Below, piece after piece: positions 18,616 through 24,995 of a DNA stretch of 64,000 nucleotides. Origin of the DNA: Melanopsichium pennsylvanicum (lineage: Eukaryota > Basidiomycota > Ustilaginomycetes > Ustilaginales). The stretch covers positions 248,001-312,000 of the forward strand of contig OAPG01000015.1 in assembly GCA_900208305.1 (NCBI GenBank), written 5' to 3'. Both the position numbers and the translations under genes were made by a program. A model generated the notes under the pieces. That model did no database searches and was not told the origin of the DNA. It was given only the letters and a program-made list of their open reading frames with translations. Numbering within the stretch: the stretch's first letter is position 1; each line of letters starts with the position of its first letter.

Positions 18616-19998
18616 CTATGGTGAGGAGTCATGTTTATCTGGCGTTGCTGCTTCCTCAGCCTTGTCTCTGAGCCGTTTCTTCTGCTTCTTCTTCTTGTTC
18701 ATCTTTTTCTTCCTCTCCTTCTCTATCTTCCTATCAATCCGACTTCCCCCAGCTTCGCCCCTCACCAACTTCTCCAGCGTCAAACTCATCCTCCTTCTCG
18801 CAAGCTCCCTGTTGCGATCTCTCGATCTGGTCTCCTGGCACGTCAGCTTGATCCCGGTCGGAAGATGGGTCAGCTGAACATTGGTGGAGAGTTTATTGAT
18901 CGCCTGTCCTCCGGGACCGGAACCACGAATGAATTTTTCTGCCAGGTCTTGTTCGTCAAGCGTAAGTGGATATTTTCGAGAGCCTGGCTGAAGCGTATAG
19001 GTACCTGCTGTGAACCACTCTGGCAGTTTGAGCTCGCCTTTGGTCACTTGCGTGGAGGAAGTTTCCGAAGATCGAGTTGAAAGAGAGGAAGAAAGAGGAT
19101 CCTCTGGCTCGGCATGCGCGTCATAATCGCCGTCTTCTTCGCTTTCGTCCAGTACTTCGAACAACTCGACGCTGTCCGAAACGGCACTATTTTCTAGTCT
19201 ATCTGTTGTTGAGCGGATTGGTTCCTTGTGTTAGCAAATGTTCGAGCCATCAGTATCTTCTCATATCAATAGTACTTACACACCAACCTCGCGCTCAAGC
19301 CATTCCTGAGTTTCCCTGGCCCCCTCCTCTTCGGTCACGAAAGTATATCGATCCAAGCTCTCATCTGCCTCCTCTTCCCTCTCATGCTCGATCCTATGCA
19401 CATCATACCAAGGTACACTCACATCCTGCTGCCTTTGCAGCTCCTTCCGGCTCCATACAACTCTTACAGGAAACGTGGCCTCAAAGTCGAACTCGCCCAA
19501 CGGTGTTGACAGCAACTCGGGCCTATCTTTCTTGAGATATGTGTTGTTAATAGGTGGATCAATGAGCTGCAACGCCGTCAGAGGCCTTGAAGAGACGTAT
19601 GTCTGAGCAATAAGTGCTGCGGGACCCTTTGAGATCATGATCGGAGGGAATGGCGGGACTTGACCGGCATCGCGGAGAGTGTTGATTGCTTCCTTCTCGA
19701 ATAGCTCCATGAGTTTTGATGATTCCGAAGGCAAGGGTTGGGTGGGGTCAAGGTCGAGCAGGAGCGATTGATAGCCTTGTGCGGAGAAGTGAGAGATCCA
19801 GGTCGAAAACACCTCTAACGGCGGAGGTGAGGAGGTCCATTTTGATGCGGTCAGAAACAGCAGCGGTGTGGGCACTTCACGAGGTGCGGTAGGCGACGGA
19901 GGGACGATGGATAGCGTTGATGTGAGACGAAGGTTGATATGGCTCAGGGCTGTGAGCCGACGAAGACCATGTGATGATACTGAGGTCAGCCGCAGCAT
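18616..19998 (-). CDS. Mitochondrial GGQ (RF-1 domain) protein fused to an alpha/beta-hydrolase-like N-terminus
   Basis: Exon 1 is 19280-19998; exon 2 ends at 18616 and starts at about 19198 or 19186. The donor is GTAAGT at 19279, and a GCTAAC branch-like site lies in the intron, whose 5' and 3' ends are otherwise unremarkable. The product is about 429-433 residues. Exon 1 opens with a mitochondrial-type presequence (MLRLTSVSSHGLRRL) and then a region with the beta-strand and helix rhythm of an alpha/beta hydrolase, with a degenerate elbow 'MISKGPAAL'. Exon 2 carries a class I release factor domain, 'RGSGPGGQAINK' with Gln near 334-338, and a Lys-rich tail like MTRFR/C12orf65 and yeast Rso55. 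These hydrolyse peptidyl-tRNA on stalled mitoribosomes. Exon 2 has no ATG before the GGQ, so it cannot be a separate gene as it stands. The exact acceptor is uncertain. Confidence 0.75.
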
Positions 19999-20358
19999 TC
20001 CGATATGGTTACAACAGCTGGAATGCAACCGAGACGAACAGTTAAGCGTGGGAAGATATACAGTAATGTCCAGTACAGTAAATTTACAGTTATGGATGAG
20101 AGTAAAAGAAGGAATGATCAGTCGGAAGAAAGCCGACGCTAAGTACATAAGACTCAGAACATGAAGTCAGGGTCCAAGCGAAAGGAAAATCGGTGGGTCT
20201 TGAGCCATGCAGCACTGGCCACCTTCACCGCGCTTGGCTTCCAACTTTCCAACTACTGTAGCTATTCACTCCATCATGTGTGCTTTCATCTCTACCACCA
20301 ACATGCACTCTCATCTCCTCATTCCTCGCTCGTATCATCTTCCAGAAAAATCATAGCT
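19999..20358. promoter_or_regulatory. Divergent region between the GGQ gene and the HMUDK-chromodomain gene
   Basis: Contains the motif copy ACAGTAAATTTACAGT at 20075-20090. An in-frame ATG at 20161 could extend the HMUDK-chromodomain protein into this region, but the encoded stretch looks like a C/T-rich leader. Confidence 0.4.
20075..20090. repeat. Recurrent intergenic motif ACAGTAAATTTACAGT, copy 4
   Basis: This copy lies 77 bases upstream of the GGQ gene's ATG and combines TACAGTAAAT with AAATTTACAGT head to tail. Confidence 0.55.
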
Positions 20359-22125
20359 ATGATTGTTTCGATATTGACGGCGGCTACCACAACCAATACC
20401 CCTGAATCCATCAAACGCGAACGCGACTCGCCCTCAATTTTTGAGTCCAACTCGTCCCTCACAGATTCCGGAAACGAAGCAAAGAGACCACGTATCGGTG
20501 CTGGAGCTTTTGAAGATCTATCGGCGGCTCCATCCGCATCATCAAGATCCTCAGCTGCACGACCAGGCCAAGTCACTATCTTGCCCGACCTCCATCTTCC
20601 TCTCAACGAACAAGTCTTTCGCACATTCTTTCAATACGCGCACGATCGCCACTCTGTCTTTCTACAGCGCAAAGCAGGCGTGCGACAAGAAGAATGGACC
20701 ACTGATCCTATATTGCGCTCTACAAAGTTCGCGAATGTTTACCGTGTGCTTGACCGGTCCACGCAATACGTGCTCACAAACGTCGTCCAGGATGGGCCGC
20801 AAGACCTCGAGGAGGTCTGTTTCAGGGTGCTATTATTCAGAAGCTTTGCTAGAATCAGCACCTACGAAGTCATCAGAAGCGCTCTCGGTGGTCCTCCGAC
20901 TTTGAAAACTTTCAGCCCGGCAGCATACGAGAACATCCTTATGCCCCACATTGGAGCAGGAAACCCAGTGTATGGCAGCTCGTACTTCATCCCCGCCCCA
21001 AAGGAGTTCAGGACGCAGTACCCTTTCCAGTCGACGCTCAGGCTGGTCCAATTGATGATCAGGACAGGGCTGCCCAAGAAGCTGGCTGGTTTGCGTCACA
21101 TGAGGGACGCGCATTCGCTTTTGGCTGTGTACCCCAGCCTGGGGCCGTTCCTGGCCATGCAGCTGTTGCTCGATTTAAATCTTTGCGAACACTTCGACTT
21201 TAGCGAAGAGGAATTTTCAGCTTGCGGTCCAGGTTCTCGCAACTGCCTCGTCGACATCTTTGGCAAATTCGTCAGTGGATTCGAACTCGAAGCCATGCGG
21301 TGGATCCAAGATAATCAAGACCACTACTGGGCCAAGTATGGGATTACCGATGTGCCCCATTTGTGTCCTGCAAGAAAGCCTGGATTGAATGTGGTCGATA
21401 TCGAGCATACCCTGTGCGAGGTGTTCAAGTATCGCAGAGCCAAATCTAAATTGGATGCGACGAATCTTGGTAGGCCGGCGAGGGGGAGGCGGTCGAAAGG
21501 GCGGTTATCAACACCACGCGAACCAAGTGTGGTTGTGATTCCGAGTCCGGTGAGAACTGTGAAGGAAGAAGACGACCAGGAAGGAGCGGATGGGTTGGAT
21601 TTTGAAGCGATTCGATCGAGTGGGTCCAAATTCTTGCCTTCCGAGAAGCCCAAAGTTTTCGCTCCTACTTCAGAAGAATCGTCAGTCACAATTCGTCTGC
21701 CGGCCAAATGGCTCGTGCCGCGTTCCGTCGATAATTACGAACGTCCTGAACCGGTTGATCTTTCAGAAGAGGTATACGAAGTATCGCACATTGTGGCCGT
21801 CATGCCGAATCAGTCTAAATGTTTGGTTAGGTGGAAAGGCTTCGGTCCTCAAGATGATACGTGGGAGTATTATTACGAGCTGGTGAACGGTGGAGCCAAG
21901 GAGGCGGTGGAGGAGTACATGAAGTGGGTCAACAGTGTTAGGGATGAGATCGGGAGGATGTTGGATGAGGAGAAACAGAAGAAGCTGGAATTGGAAAAGA
22001 TGAAGGTGGAGGATTTGGTCGGAGAGTCGCAGCAGAGGGTGAGTAGGAGTGGAAGGCAGATTGGAGGTGATAGTACGGGTTCAGGGTTGCCGTTTGCCAA
22101 TCTGCCGTTGTCTTTGCCTTTTTGA
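20359..22125 (+). CDS. 5-hmdU DNA kinase-like (HMUDK) domain joined to a chromodomain
   Basis: 588 residues from the ATG at 20359; an upstream in-frame ATG at 20161 would give 654. Residues 1-80 are disordered with a basic patch (SIKRERDSP, EAKRPR), a possible nuclear signal. Residues about 83-325 resemble the HMUDK helical family (earlier called alpha-glutamyl/putrescinyl thymine pyrophosphorylase clade 3): 'EEWTTDPILRSTKFANVYRV', 'LDRSTQYVLTNVV', 'FRVLLFRSF' and, late in the domain, 'LVDIFGKFVSGFELEAMRWI'. Phage members phosphorylate 5-hydroxymethyluracil in DNA. A basic/acidic linker follows (GRPARGRRSKGRLS). Residues about 470-525 form a chromodomain: 'VYEVSHIVAVM...CLVRWKGFGPQDDTWEYY', with Tyr, Trp and Phe able to form a methyl-lysine cage. 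Inference: a nuclear enzyme aimed at histone-marked chromatin. The family call is from memory of the motif and needs a profile search. Confidence 0.72.
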   Translation: MIVSILTAATTTNTPESIKRERDSPSIFESNSSLTDSGNEAKRPRIGAGAFEDLSAAPSASSRSSAARPGQVTILPDLHLPLNEQVFRTFFQYAHDRHSVFLQRKAGVRQEEWTTDPILRSTKFANVYRVLDRSTQYVLTNVVQDGPQDLEEVCFRVLLFRSFARISTYEVIRSALGGPPTLKTFSPAAYENILMPHIGAGNPVYGSSYFIPAPKEFRTQYPFQSTLRLVQLMIRTGLPKKLAGLRHMRDAHSLLAVYPSLGPFLAMQLLLDLNLCEHFDFSEEEFSACGPGSRNCLVDIFGKFVSGFELEAMRWIQDNQDHYWAKYGITDVPHLCPARKPGLNVVDIEHTLCEVFKYRRAKSKLDATNLGRPARGRRSKGRLSTPREPSVVVIPSPVRTVKEEDDQEGADGLDFEAIRSSGSKFLPSEKPKVFAPTSEESSVTIRLPAKWLVPRSVDNYERPEPVDLSEEVYEVSHIVAVMPNQSKCLVRWKGFGPQDDTWEYYYELVNGGAKEAVEEYMKWVNSVRDEIGRMLDEEKQKKLELEKMKVEDLVGESQQRVSRSGRQIGGDSTGSGLPFANLPLSLPF

Positions 22126-22317: not shown

Positions 22318-23286
22318 TTATGAAAATGATTCGATCGTATCCAATTCAGCATCATCGTATTTGAGTTGTTGTTTGAACCAAAAAGGTAGGTTGAGTTGAT
22401 GTGGAAAAGTAATGAGATCTGTATCAAACATTTCGACGAATCTTTCGTTTGTAGCTCTTGCACGATTTCCTGCAAAGTGTCTGTATTCGAGTAGGATGGT
22501 TGCAAAGTTCCATCTTTGTAATTTTCGAAAACATGCTAGTAACACTCCGATTTCGTGAATACCGCTTGTATCTGTTACGAGAATAGGATGATACGTTGTG
22601 TCGAGTAAGATGTTGAGCGAGTCTTTCACAAGTTCTTCAGTTAGAGTTGGTGTAGAGTGAGATGAAGCGAAAGAAAGGGTATGGGAGGAGAAGAATGGAG
22701 TGTGGAGGCTGTGTGATGTGGGAGGGATGGAGTGAAGGAATGATAGATCGAGGTGAGCTGAAGTATCTCCAGATGAAGAGGGGTTGGTGAAAGAAGAGGT
22801 AGCCGAGTTGGTACTGGGATGAGACGAGGGATGGTGGATGAGCGAGGATAGATCGTGTTGCTGATTACCCCATCGTTTCAGTCCGAAATGGAGAAAGTTG
22901 ATAGAGTGTTTGTTGCAGAAAGCAGTCAAGCTGGGACTTGGTAGTTCAGGTGTGAGAGAAAGGATGGTTTTGAGGTGCAAAGTGCGCAAGAAAGGGTGGT
23001 TTGCTGGCGTGGGTGTAGCACTACGATAGATCTGTGGCGCAACACTGGCAAACAGCGATGGTGGTTCGACAAGAGGAGCAAGTGGTATGGTGATTGGATT
23101 TGTAGACTGATGATGGTTGTGATTATGTGAGATGGACTGAGAATGAGACGAACTTGAAGATGAGGAATGATGATGATTATGATGATTATGATGATGGTGG
23201 TGGTGGGAATGAGTCGAAGATAAGTTGGAGGGGGATGTGCTGACTTTGGATGTGGGAATTGTTGGAGCGAGGTTAGCGCTCGACAT
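22318..23286 (-). CDS. OCA4: Siw14/Oca family pseudophosphatase (Oca4-like)
   Basis: 322 residues from the ATG at 23286 (MSSANLAP); the frame is open 29 codons further upstream. After a Ser/His-rich N-terminus there is the Siw14/Oca dual-specificity phosphatase fold: 'SLFASVAPQIYRSATPTPAN', 'LHLKTILSLTPELP', then 'FRKLQRWNFATILLEYRHFA' and 'MFDTDL'. In active members the loop reads HCxxGKxRTG. Here the aligned residues (about 237-246) are TDTSGIHEIG, so the catalytic Cys is Asp and the Arg is Glu. The protein should therefore lack phosphatase chemistry, like yeast Oca4-type members that act in a multi-Oca complex linked to inositol pyrophosphate signalling. A stretch of about 30 residues is nearly all His, Asn and Ser, encoded by trinucleotide repeats. 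Oca4 rather than Oca2/Oca6 is my best guess. Confidence 0.7.
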   Translation of the reverse strand: MSSANLAPTIPTSKVSTSPSNLSSTHSHHHHHHNHHNHHHSSSSSSSHSQSISHNHNHHQSTNPITIPLAPLVEPPSLFASVAPQIYRSATPTPANHPFLRTLHLKTILSLTPELPSPSLTAFCNKHSINFLHFGLKRWGNQQHDLSSLIHHPSSHPSTNSATSSFTNPSSSGDTSAHLDLSFLHSIPPTSHSLHTPFFSSHTLSFASSHSTPTLTEELVKDSLNILLDTTYHPILVTDTSGIHEIGVLLACFRKLQRWNFATILLEYRHFAGNRARATNERFVEMFDTDLITFPHQLNLPFWFKQQLKYDDAELDTIESFS

Positions 23287-23711
23287 GGTTCTCGAAAGTT
23301 TCCTCAAGAGATCTGTAGCAAGAAAATGCGGGATGTGAGGGGATAGAAAGGCGAGAATGATGAAAGGCAGCAAGAAAGCTCACTAAGTTACCATATACTC
23401 TTCCAGGCTGTATATACTCTTCCAGGCTGTGTGAACCCTTAAAAATGTCAAAGTTTCGGAAGTCGGATGCGTCGAGCGGTTACCTCCACTAAAGACTCGT
23501 GATTTGAGCTTTGACATATCTATGTGATTGCTATTCACATTCTGCTTGGTAAACTTCCTTCTAAAAAATCCATGCTTTACCTTACTAGACAAGACACAAA
23601 CTCCTGCAAAATCACTGTTTCATGAGCAACAGATTCATGTCGAAACCCCAACTTTGAACTTGAAAGCAGGACTGGTATGGACGAGCGGCTCCGACTAGTA
23701 TCTCAACGTGC
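23287..23711. other. Divergent region between OCA4-like and SLX4 genes
   Basis: No gene is seen. A short direct duplication of TATACTCTTCCAGGCTGT occurs at about 23395-23428, two copies in tandem. Confidence 0.55.
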
Positions 23712-24995
23712 ATGAACAAGCTACCTACCTCTACCTTGTGCTTGGGTGTCACCCACACCCAGCCCATGGCTCTCCCCCGATCTCGCCGCTTTATCTTCCT
23801 ATATCCGACTTTTAACATGTCTCGTCAATCGAGTAGGCTTTGTCACAGCCACCTCGGCGTTTCTTCCCCTTCGCCGCTTCATAATCCAAATGCTTCTGCT
23901 CGATCTTCTTCTTCTTCTTCTTCTTCTTCTTCTTCTTCTTCATCATCATCAGTGGCAGCTGCTGAATCATCAAGGAAGTCCACAACCGACAGGAGCAAAG
24001 CTTGGAAAACAAGCGTTACTGCATCAGTGGCTGATATGACGTCAACACCGGATTTTGACAGCTGGTCTATCCCTCAGCTTCAAGCACAGGTGAAAAAGTA
24101 CGGCTTCAAGGTTTCTCGGAAGCGCGTTACTCTGATCGATCAGCTACGGGCTGTGTATGAAGCTTTGGGTCGGTCCGGAATTGTTCTCGAACCAACTCCT
24201 ATACAATATCCTGCTTCGCTCTCGGATTCAGCGTTAGAACCAAGCACAGCGATGCAAGTTGGAGAGGTAAACAGGAGGACGACACGGCGTAGGCTCGTGC
24301 TACCTGAACAAAGTGGTGCACCACATATCGTGGGCAAGGAAAGAAAGGGGAAAGGCAAAGGAAGGAAAAGCGACCCTTTCATCGTAGATGATTTGAGCTC
24401 ATCCTCCCCGTCCTCTGTCTCTTCTTCTTCTTCGTCACTTGCTTCAGTTATCATGGATCAAGAAGCAAAAAATGGTGAGCAGGAAGCGGGAGATTTCACA
24501 GCACTGCTCGAGAGGGAGGCAGCTTCCGCCACTTCTGGCTCCCGATCCCCTGCTACTCTCAATTCTCCATCTTCTTCTTCATCCATGGATATTCCTCTCT
24601 CAGCTTCAACATCACCCCACAAACCACATCGTCATCAACGTAGTCCCTTACGCTCCCGTTCAAGATCACAATCATCAGACGACATACCTTTGTCAACCCT
24701 CAATCCAATTCATGCCTTCATCAACACAGCAGATGAAGAAAATTCGGAACCTCCACCAAACCCATCACCAGCCTTGGCAGAAACAATGACTCAAGCTATA
24801 AAGTCAGACTTTTCGGTTTGGACACGCATCCTTCGTTACGAACCCATCTCTTTTGACGAACTGATCTCCATTGCCACACAAAACGGCTTGACTATGGATA
24901 CGGGCAAAACGAAGGAAGAGTTGCGAGCTTGGTTGGATACACAGTGTATTTGTTTCTACTCTGCTCAACTCACCGGCTCCAGATCTAGACACTAA
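23712..24995 (+). CDS. SLX4: Slx4-like structure-specific endonuclease scaffold, short form
   Basis: 427 residues from the first ATG; alternative starts are 23766 (MALPRS) and 23817 (MSRQSS, better context with A at -3). Near residue 114 is 'DFDSWSIPQLQAQVKKYGFK' followed by 'VSRKRVTLIDQLRAVYEAL', a SAP-like helix pair typical of fungal Slx4. The C-terminus ('VWTRILRYEPISFDELISIA', 'EELRAWLDTQCICFYSAQ') matches the Slx4 conserved C-terminal domain that binds Slx1. Slx1-Slx4 cuts branched DNA such as flaps and Holliday junctions. The protein is much shorter than most Slx4 orthologues and lacks a visible UBZ or BTB region. A 17-residue poly-Ser comes from a TCT microsatellite, and several more Ser runs occur between the two domains. 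Confidence 0.72.
   Translation: MNKLPTSTLCLGVTHTQPMALPRSRRFIFLYPTFNMSRQSSRLCHSHLGVSSPSPLHNPNASARSSSSSSSSSSSSSSSSVAAAESSRKSTTDRSKAWKTSVTASVADMTSTPDFDSWSIPQLQAQVKKYGFKVSRKRVTLIDQLRAVYEALGRSGIVLEPTPIQYPASLSDSALEPSTAMQVGEVNRRTTRRRLVLPEQSGAPHIVGKERKGKGKGRKSDPFIVDDLSSSSPSSVSSSSSSLASVIMDQEAKNGEQEAGDFTALLEREAASATSGSRSPATLNSPSSSSSMDIPLSASTSPHKPHRHQRSPLRSRSRSQSSDDIPLSTLNPIHAFINTADEENSEPPPNPSPALAETMTQAIKSDFSVWTRILRYEPISFDELISIATQNGLTMDTGKTKEELRAWLDTQCICFYSAQLTGSRSRH
23904..23941. repeat. (TCT)n trinucleotide repeat coding for poly-Ser in SLX4
   Basis: About twelve TCT/TTC units are followed by ATC/TCA units, inside the SLX4 reading frame. It is likely to vary in length between strains. Confidence 0.9.

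What the first reader, a model, noticed from the sequence alone, without database searches (positions are those of the whole stretch)
20359..22125. DNA-hypermodification-type kinase domain fused to a chromodomain
Seen: an HMUDK-like N-terminal domain (EEW..DPIL..TKFANVYR..DR pattern) and a C-terminal chromodomain with an aromatic cage (Tyr, Trp in RWKGF, Phe) in one uninterrupted frame. Known: phage HMUDK proteins phosphorylate 5-hydroxymethyluracil in DNA as a step to hypermodified bases, and basidiomycetes have TET/JBP oxygenases that can make oxidised pyrimidines. Inference: this fungus may write, read or remove a modified base at chromatin carrying a histone methyl mark. I know of no characterised fungal member.
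Basis: partly seen in the sequence, partly recalled or inferred. Interest (0 to 1): 0.88.

Follow-up and report, generated by a model that had tools for sequence, protein, structure and literature searches.

The report
Phage DNA-modification domain joined to chromodomain
A smut fungus carries one intact gene that joins a DNA-base-handling domain known from viruses of bacteria to a module that reads histone marks, which hints that some fungi may write, read or remove an unstudied modified DNA base in silenced chromatin.

Summary
Window 20359-22125 (+) encodes 588 aa with PF18723 (HMUDK_hel, residues 85-362, E 6e-96) and a CDY/HP1-type chromodomain with an intact aromatic cage. The pair recurs in other smuts, Polyporales and Agaricales, probably as one clade.

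'Kinase domain' is wrong. PF18723 is the helical companion of phage 5-hmdU DNA kinases; no P-loop is present. Modelled alone, the domain is closest to phage 5-PmdU glycinyltransferase PUGT and HhH-GPD DNA glycosylases, and it keeps the family's conserved polar residues.

Bacterial relatives sit beside TS-like, MazG, IrrE, TIR and Nmad2 genes; a phage subgroup sharing the fungal motif sits beside dUMP-type TS-family, TET-associated glycosyltransferase and 5-hmdU kinase genes.

This genome also has two C5-methyltransferase genes (one DNMT5-type), a Pre-SET/SET gene, HP1-like genes and Argonaute, but no TET/JBP hit (weak negative).

Best reading: a prokaryotic base-flipping domain domesticated and tethered to H3K9-methylated chromatin, acting on or reading a C5-modified pyrimidine. 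Chemistry, substrate and histone mark are unproven. A full-text search found no paper naming PF18723.

The parts
20359..22125 (+). Coding sequence read without an intron, 588 aa, PF18723-chromodomain protein
Evidence: Open frame; near-full-length relatives.
20611..21444 (+). PF18723 HMUDK_hel domain, residues 85-362; all-helical, HhH-GPD-like predicted fold
21130..21180 (+). Helix-hairpin-helix-like segment, residues 258-274 (YPSLGPFLAMQLLLDLN)
   Evidence: Gly262, Phe264, Gln268 in 84 of 84 rows; hhalign pairs it with the HhH of E. coli AlkA, single-sequence template, E 0.0026 but probability only 11.6%
21226..21234 (+). Gly290-Pro291-Gly292 loop at the start of a helix, near where HhH-GPD enzymes hold their catalytic Asp (inferred)
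   Evidence: G290 and G292 84 of 84, P291 83 of 84; helix 291-301 in the model
21397..21438 (+). C-terminal signature D347-x-E349-H350-x-L352-C353-E354-x-x-K357-Y358-x-R360; fungal-type rows have E-H where bacterial rows have Q-N
   Evidence: E349, H350 and L352 in 20 of 20 fungal-type rows; Q349 and N350 in 36 of 36 and F352 in 35 of 36 bacterial rows with letters there
21472..21738 (+). Linker, residues 372-460, partly low confidence and less conserved
   Evidence: pLDDT under 50 at 382-429; 51-62% identity over residues 371-460 in the nine closest rows
21754..21948 (+). Chromodomain, residues 466-530, cage Tyr473 (21775), Trp492 (21832), Phe495 (21841)
21949..22122 (+). C-terminal helices and tail, residues 531-588
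   Evidence: model; no family hit

Best explanation
A domesticated prokaryotic (bacterial or phage) DNA-base-handling domain, tethered to chromatin. SHOWN: PF18723 plus a chromodomain with a complete aromatic cage in one protein; no P-loop kinase in it; a predicted fold like phage 5-phosphomethyl-dU glycinyltransferase (PUGT) and HhH-GPD DNA glycosylases; the family's conserved polar residues retained. INFERRED: the chromodomain docks the protein on H3K9-methylated nucleosomes (a Pre-SET/SET gene and HP1-like genes are present; no PRC2 CXC hit, with no ringing control). The HhH-like domain then grips DNA, flips out a pyrimidine and acts on its C5 substituent, most likely by a transferase-type step like PUGT rather than as a kinase, within the pathway that silences transposons. 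The substrate (5hmU, another C5-modified T/U, or a 5mC product) is not known.
For: Family and fold. No P-loop. The conserved polar set is kept: R129, D132, Q136, R156, T168, Q268 in 84 of 84 rows; C353, E354, K357, Y358, R360 in 83 of 84, the other a gap. A thymidylate-kinase-type gene was found in only 18 of 80 bacterial loci. Phage relatives with the fungal E-H motif sit with TS-family genes in 68 of 107 loci, TET-associated glycosyltransferase in 32 and a P-loop gene in 19 (one representative of each named); 61 of 64 TS-family proteins there carry the dUMP-type Asn. Chromatin partners in the same genome: DNMT5-type and a second C5-methyltransferase gene, Pre-SET/SET, two chromoshadow genes, Piwi.
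Confidence: 0.4

Rival explanations
1. Non-catalytic reader: the HhH-like domain only recognises DNA or a modified base and, with the chromodomain, gives a bivalent chromatin-DNA anchor.
For: In phage and bacterial systems PF18723 is a companion of a P-loop domain, fused or nearby, which fits a DNA-recognition subunit; the fungal protein has no kinase.
Against: A large set of charged and polar residues is conserved whether or not a kinase is fused or found nearby.
Confidence: 0.25
2. Eraser: a DNA glycosylase-like protein that excises a modified or damaged pyrimidine in heterochromatin.
Against: No PF00730 hit. The place of the catalytic Asp holds either near-invariant Glu283 (ungapped reading; 81 of 84) or the invariant Gly-Pro-Gly loop (helix-anchored reading), not an invariant Asp. 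Relatives sit beside base- and nucleotide-modification genes, although one phage neighbour family is a pyrimidine-dimer glycosylase (14 of 107 loci).
Confidence: 0.14
3. Half of a split 5-hmdU DNA kinase: the fungal protein targets, and a separate P-loop nucleotide kinase in trans phosphorylates, 5hmU.
For: Kinase and PF18723 are separate adjacent genes in a Microbacterium phage, and a PF18748 gene lies two frames upstream of PF18723 in viral locus L165. MazG_C, a predicted nucleotide kinase (PMC13092281, passage), is in 58 of 80 bacterial loci.
Confidence: 0.12
4. The domain was repurposed away from DNA bases (for example nucleotide or RNA binding) and only the fold and core residues persist.
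For: Bacterial neighbours include nucleotide-pool enzymes such as MazG and TS-like genes.
Against: Fusion to a chromodomain points to chromatin; core motif and DNA-glycosylase-like fold are kept.
Confidence: 0.09

Closest known systems
Phage and bacterial PF18723 proteins (5-hmdU DNA kinase helical domain; some annotated alpha-glutamyl/putrescinyl thymine pyrophosphorylase clade 1)
   Same: Same family and, in most rows, the same conserved residues; phage members match the predicted fold
   Different: Fungal proteins add a C-terminal chromodomain, lack any fused kinase, and carry E-H-L instead of the bacterial Q-N-F in the C-terminal signature (a phage subgroup shares E-H-L)
Bacillus phage SP10 5-hmdU DNA kinase (F8WQ30, 637 aa)
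   Same: Matches the domain model, Foldseek E 5e-10, TM 0.79 by query length
   Different: About 340 residues longer than the domain modelled; its own P-loop was not examined here; the fungal protein has none
Phage PaMx11 gp46 PUGT, 5-phosphomethyl-dU glycinyltransferase (8z2n, 8z2m)
   Different: 6% identity; not among the 60 shown of 69 hits of the PDB profile search
HhH-GPD DNA glycosylases (MjOgg, AlkA, Nth, OGG1, ROS1)
   Same: Fold and, weakly, the HhH segment
   Different: No PF00730 match; no invariant catalytic Asp
Plant chromomethylases (chromodomain inside a DNA C5-methyltransferase; recalled; the maize entry 7ubu appears)
   Same: Same logic: a histone-mark reader joined to a DNA-base-acting domain
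   Different: Unrelated catalytic fold and chemistry (recalled)

Membership tests
PF18723 HMUDK_hel | Whole-domain profile match above the curated cut-off | tested here: met
   321.5 bits against 25, positions 2-275 of 281
PF18723 HMUDK_hel | Family-conserved residues | tested here: met
   The window protein carries the majority residue at all 38 positions conserved in at least 95% of 84 rows
5-hmdU DNA kinase (enzyme) | P-loop kinase domain (PF18748 or PF02223) in the protein | tested here: not met
   No such hit at E up to 1; no [AG]x4GK[ST] in P0001; residues 1-53 of low confidence
5-hmdU DNA kinase (enzyme) | Phosphorylation of 5hmU in DNA | not testable with these tools
   Needs a biochemical assay
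Amino acid:DNA transferase (PUGT-like) | Fold | tested here: met
Amino acid:DNA transferase (PUGT-like) | Sequence-family match and catalytic residues | tested here: inconclusive
   Only PF18723 and Chromo listed; 8z2n not among the 60 shown of 69 PDB sequence hits; no superposition of residues possible
HhH-GPD glycosylase (PF00730) | Profile match | tested here: not met
   No PF00730 hit at E up to 1
HhH-GPD glycosylase (PF00730) | Catalytic Asp after the HhH | tested here: inconclusive
   Glu283 or the Gly-Pro-Gly loop, depending on the alignment
Chromodomain, methyl-lysine reader | Profile match | tested here: met
   27.8 bits, over the cut-off; 23.3 bits against 25.1
Chromodomain, methyl-lysine reader | Aromatic cage | tested here: met
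   Tyr473/Trp492/Phe495; aromatic in 20 of 20 rows at each position
Chromodomain, methyl-lysine reader | Binding to H3K9me or H3K27me | not testable with these tools
   Mark inferred from genome content only
TET/JBP-fed hypermodification pathway | TET/JBP gene in the same genome | tested here: inconclusive
   No PF12851 or PF20515 hit, but no control genome rang; PF12851 also found nothing in 17 phage and viral records

The most novel reading that the evidence does not exclude
Basidiomycete heterochromatin carries an enzymatically hypermodified pyrimidine, written by this chromodomain-tethered phage-type protein: a eukaryotic DNA hypermodification, besides base J, coupled directly to histone methylation.
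Probability: 0.12. Interest if true: 0.95.

Novelty: new variant of a known kind. Interest (0 to 1): 0.62.

Why it matters
It is a concrete, intact, conserved eukaryotic gene that joins a base-handling domain of phage and bacterial DNA modification to a histone-mark reader, in a fungus that also has DNA methyltransferase and Argonaute genes. If the domain is active, these fungi would hold either a new DNA base or a new way to read or remove one, and the chromodomain would tell where in the genome to look. Recombinant protein, modified oligonucleotides, LC-MS of nucleosides and a deletion strain could settle it. It also corrects a misleading database name: 'DNA kinase' for a domain without a kinase site.

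Tried and rejected
Cytosine switch: fungal-type rows have Glu349-His350 where bacteria have Gln-Asn, which suggested a change from thymine/uracil to cytosine. Viral loci with the same E-H motif were fetched and their TS-family neighbours examined: 61 of 64 carry an Asn at the place that reads dUMP (its meaning is recalled), 1 an Asp, 2 had no motif. This speaks against the switch; the reading was dropped. My first two search patterns for that residue missed most sequences, and the final one was widened after looking at the motifs.

RIP-like mutation: CpG observed/expected in the 16 best chromodomain-matched loci is 0.77-1.00 against 0.91 for the window. No support. I took these for retrotransposon pieces without checking; one (L103, two Chromo matches in a 1733-aa frame) looks like CHD1.

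Origin: one search gives the 20 fungal-type rows as one side of a branch (SH-aLRT 99), but, with E-H phages added, leaves two fungal groups and the bacteria unresolved, and one search has one divergent phage row (L015) inside the fungal clade on a very long branch. Phage or bacterial source is not resolved. P0166, of unknown origin, was wrongly labelled fungal; it was dropped and regrouped. Nine further long-branch rows were left out. Trees and conservation counts used 37 of 80 bacterial loci (even-numbered ones with a called frame), and rows with too little of the domain (P0163, phage Kevin) fell out.

Profile comparison with Nth/MutY gave nothing useful. Foldseek on the full-length model gave no match at E 0.001 or better, mostly weak chromodomain hits at the top. 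PADLOC and NCBIfam gave no hit for P0001. Identity with 'CHP1' of U. bromivora (UBRO_05116 in PMC5106213, passages) was considered: the relative found here is UBRO_14373, another tag; the two sequences were not compared.

Odds changed after checking: best explanation 0.42 to 0.40 and split kinase 0.10 to 0.12, because MazG_C, frequent beside bacterial relatives, is itself called a predicted nucleotide kinase.

Full report
WHAT IS THERE. Window 20359-22125 (+) is one open frame of 588 codons. Residues 85-362 match PF18723 HMUDK_hel at E 6.4e-96 over nearly the whole profile; residues 480-522 match Chromo at 23.3 bits, just under its cut-off, and at 27.8 bits, over it, in the six-frame genome search. 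The best solved sequence relatives are the CDYL, CDYL2 and MPP8 chromodomains. The cage residues are Tyr473, Trp492 and Phe495, aromatic in 20 of 20 aligned relatives. The genome held (21.1 Mb, 61 contigs) has one PF18723 match.

WHO ELSE HAS IT. The protein search listed 40 relatives at E 0.001 or better among 7995 scored candidates. Named fungi among them: Ustilago trichophora, U. bromivora, three Sporisorium, Pseudozyma hubeiensis and P. flocculosa, Kalmanozyma, Thecaphora, Violaceomyces; Amylocystis, Abortiporus, Epithele (Polyporales, recalled); Amanita phalloides and Arthromyces (Agaricales, recalled). For S. scitamineum, P. hubeiensis and Thecaphora the precomputed Pfam list lacks Chromo, but the chromodomain is visible in the alignment. 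Most of the rest are unnamed environmental proteins, several of them fragments with both domains, and P0030 is fused to a thymidylate-kinase domain. Twenty chromodomain-type rows (16 named, the window included, and 4 unnamed) form one side of a branch with SH-aLRT 99 when long-branch phages are left out. In a tree with E-H phages added, two fungal groups and the bacteria meet in an unresolved fork. A single horizontal gain is the simplest reading; it is not shown, and the donor is unresolved.

NOT THE KINASE. PF18723 is the helical part named after phage 5-hmdU DNA kinases. The kinase part is a P-loop domain: fused as PF02223 in the bacterial protein L019, in the adjacent gene as PF18751 in a Microbacterium phage, two frames upstream as PF18748 'HMUDK_HMUD1' in viral locus L165. 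P0001 has none of these, has no P-loop pattern, and its first 53 residues are of low confidence. A phage 5hmdU DNA kinase is reported to phosphorylate 5hmdU in DNA in a sequence-specific manner (PMC7653180, passages); that activity cannot be assigned here.

RESIDUES. Across 84 rows (five named-phage and four long-branch viral rows left out of 93; 37 of 80 bacterial loci used), 38 positions are conserved in at least 95%, and P0001 has the common residue at all of them. Divergent phage rows break some of them. The fungal-type rows differ together at three places of the C-terminal signature: Glu349, His350 and Leu352 in 20 of 20, against Gln 36/36, Asn 36/36 and Phe 35/36 in bacterial rows with letters there.

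CONTEXT OF RELATIVES. With crude gene calling and iterated profiles from single seeds (five loci had no called hit frame), TS-like genes occur in 62, MazG/MazG_C in 58, IrrE-type in 53, thymidylate-kinase-like in 18, TIR in 17, Nmad2 in 16, and genes found with a true thymidylate synthase as seed in 15 (one seed of each named). 'TS-like' is a weak label: its seed scores 17.4 bits against a cut-off of 24.3, and 46 of 68 such bacterial proteins lack the TS active-site motif. There is no background rate for these counts. A machine-learning study lists a 5-hydroxymethyluracil kinase domain among newly validated defence domains, aGPT-Pplase among predicted ones, and calls MazG-C a predicted nucleotide kinase (PMC13092281, passages). 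Around E-H viral genes, within six genes, a TS-family gene was found in 68 of 107 loci, a TET-associated glycosyltransferase in 32, a P-loop gene in 19 and a pyrimidine-dimer-glycosylase-type gene in 14 (one representative of each named). Of 64 TS-family proteins examined there, 61 carry the dUMP-type Asn (the meaning of that residue is recalled). Brevibacterium phage LuckyBarnes has TS, two glycosyltransferases and PF18723 in a row.

CONTEXT IN THIS GENOME. A 2576-codon frame with DNA_methylase, SNF2 and helicase domains (DNMT5-type by architecture) and a second DNA_methylase gene; Pre-SET plus SET in one frame; two chromoshadow matches, each close to a Chromo match; a Piwi domain; no preSET_CXC hit (controls silent). 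No Tet_JBP or PF20515 hit; controls were silent there too, so this is weak. A survey of TET-bearing fungal transposons names Pucciniomycotina, Agaricomycotina and Pezizomycotina, and the word-start 'ustilag' does not occur in its main text (PMC12730594, passages). This is suggestive, not a test.

READING. The protein most likely sits on H3K9-methylated chromatin and flips a pyrimidine into a pocket that the family has kept.

NOVELTY. A full-text search for 'PF18723' and 'HMUDK_hel' found no paper; searches combining hydroxymethyluracil, DNA kinase, hypermodification, pyrophosphorylase, chromodomain and fungi listed none whose title or start of abstract describes this fusion (one search listed 20 of 33). 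The library holds open-licence papers only. The 2013 survey of DNA modification systems by Iyer and colleagues (recalled), which might mention fungal members, is not held and was not read; nor was the PUGT structure paper. Databases already list both domains on these proteins. Hence 'new variant of a known kind'.

Noticed in passing
P0003 (Sporisorium scitamineum relative): Database name 'related to SET2-Histone methyltransferase', although only PF18723 is listed for it; probable misannotation.
   Followed up: partly
L015/L139 (viral contig IMGVR_UViG_3300037070_005649): A phage PF18723 protein, with no Chromo hit, carries the same D-x-E-H-x-L-C-E motif as the fungal clade and falls inside or near it on a very long branch.
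   Followed up: partly
L018-L097 (bacterial loci): A recurrent neighbourhood of IrrE-type protease, TS-like protein, PF18723, MazG/MazG_C, sometimes TIR and Nmad2, looks like a defence or nucleotide-modification system.
   Followed up: partly
phrog_800: PHROG named 'terminase small subunit' matches both a PF18748 P-loop protein and a PF18723 part, so the name is doubtful.
   Followed up: no
G000, 108 Chromo matches: About 40 of the 108 lie in frames of roughly 1200-1310 aa with near-identical scores, as expected of chromodomain retrotransposons; not verified.
   Followed up: no
window 18616-19230 (-), 19276-20166 (-), 22318-23379 (-), 23664-24995 (+): Neighbouring frames: an RF-1 domain protein, one without a Pfam hit, a tyrosine phosphatase-family protein and an Slx4 protein; nothing in these four points to a mobile element.
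   Followed up: yes
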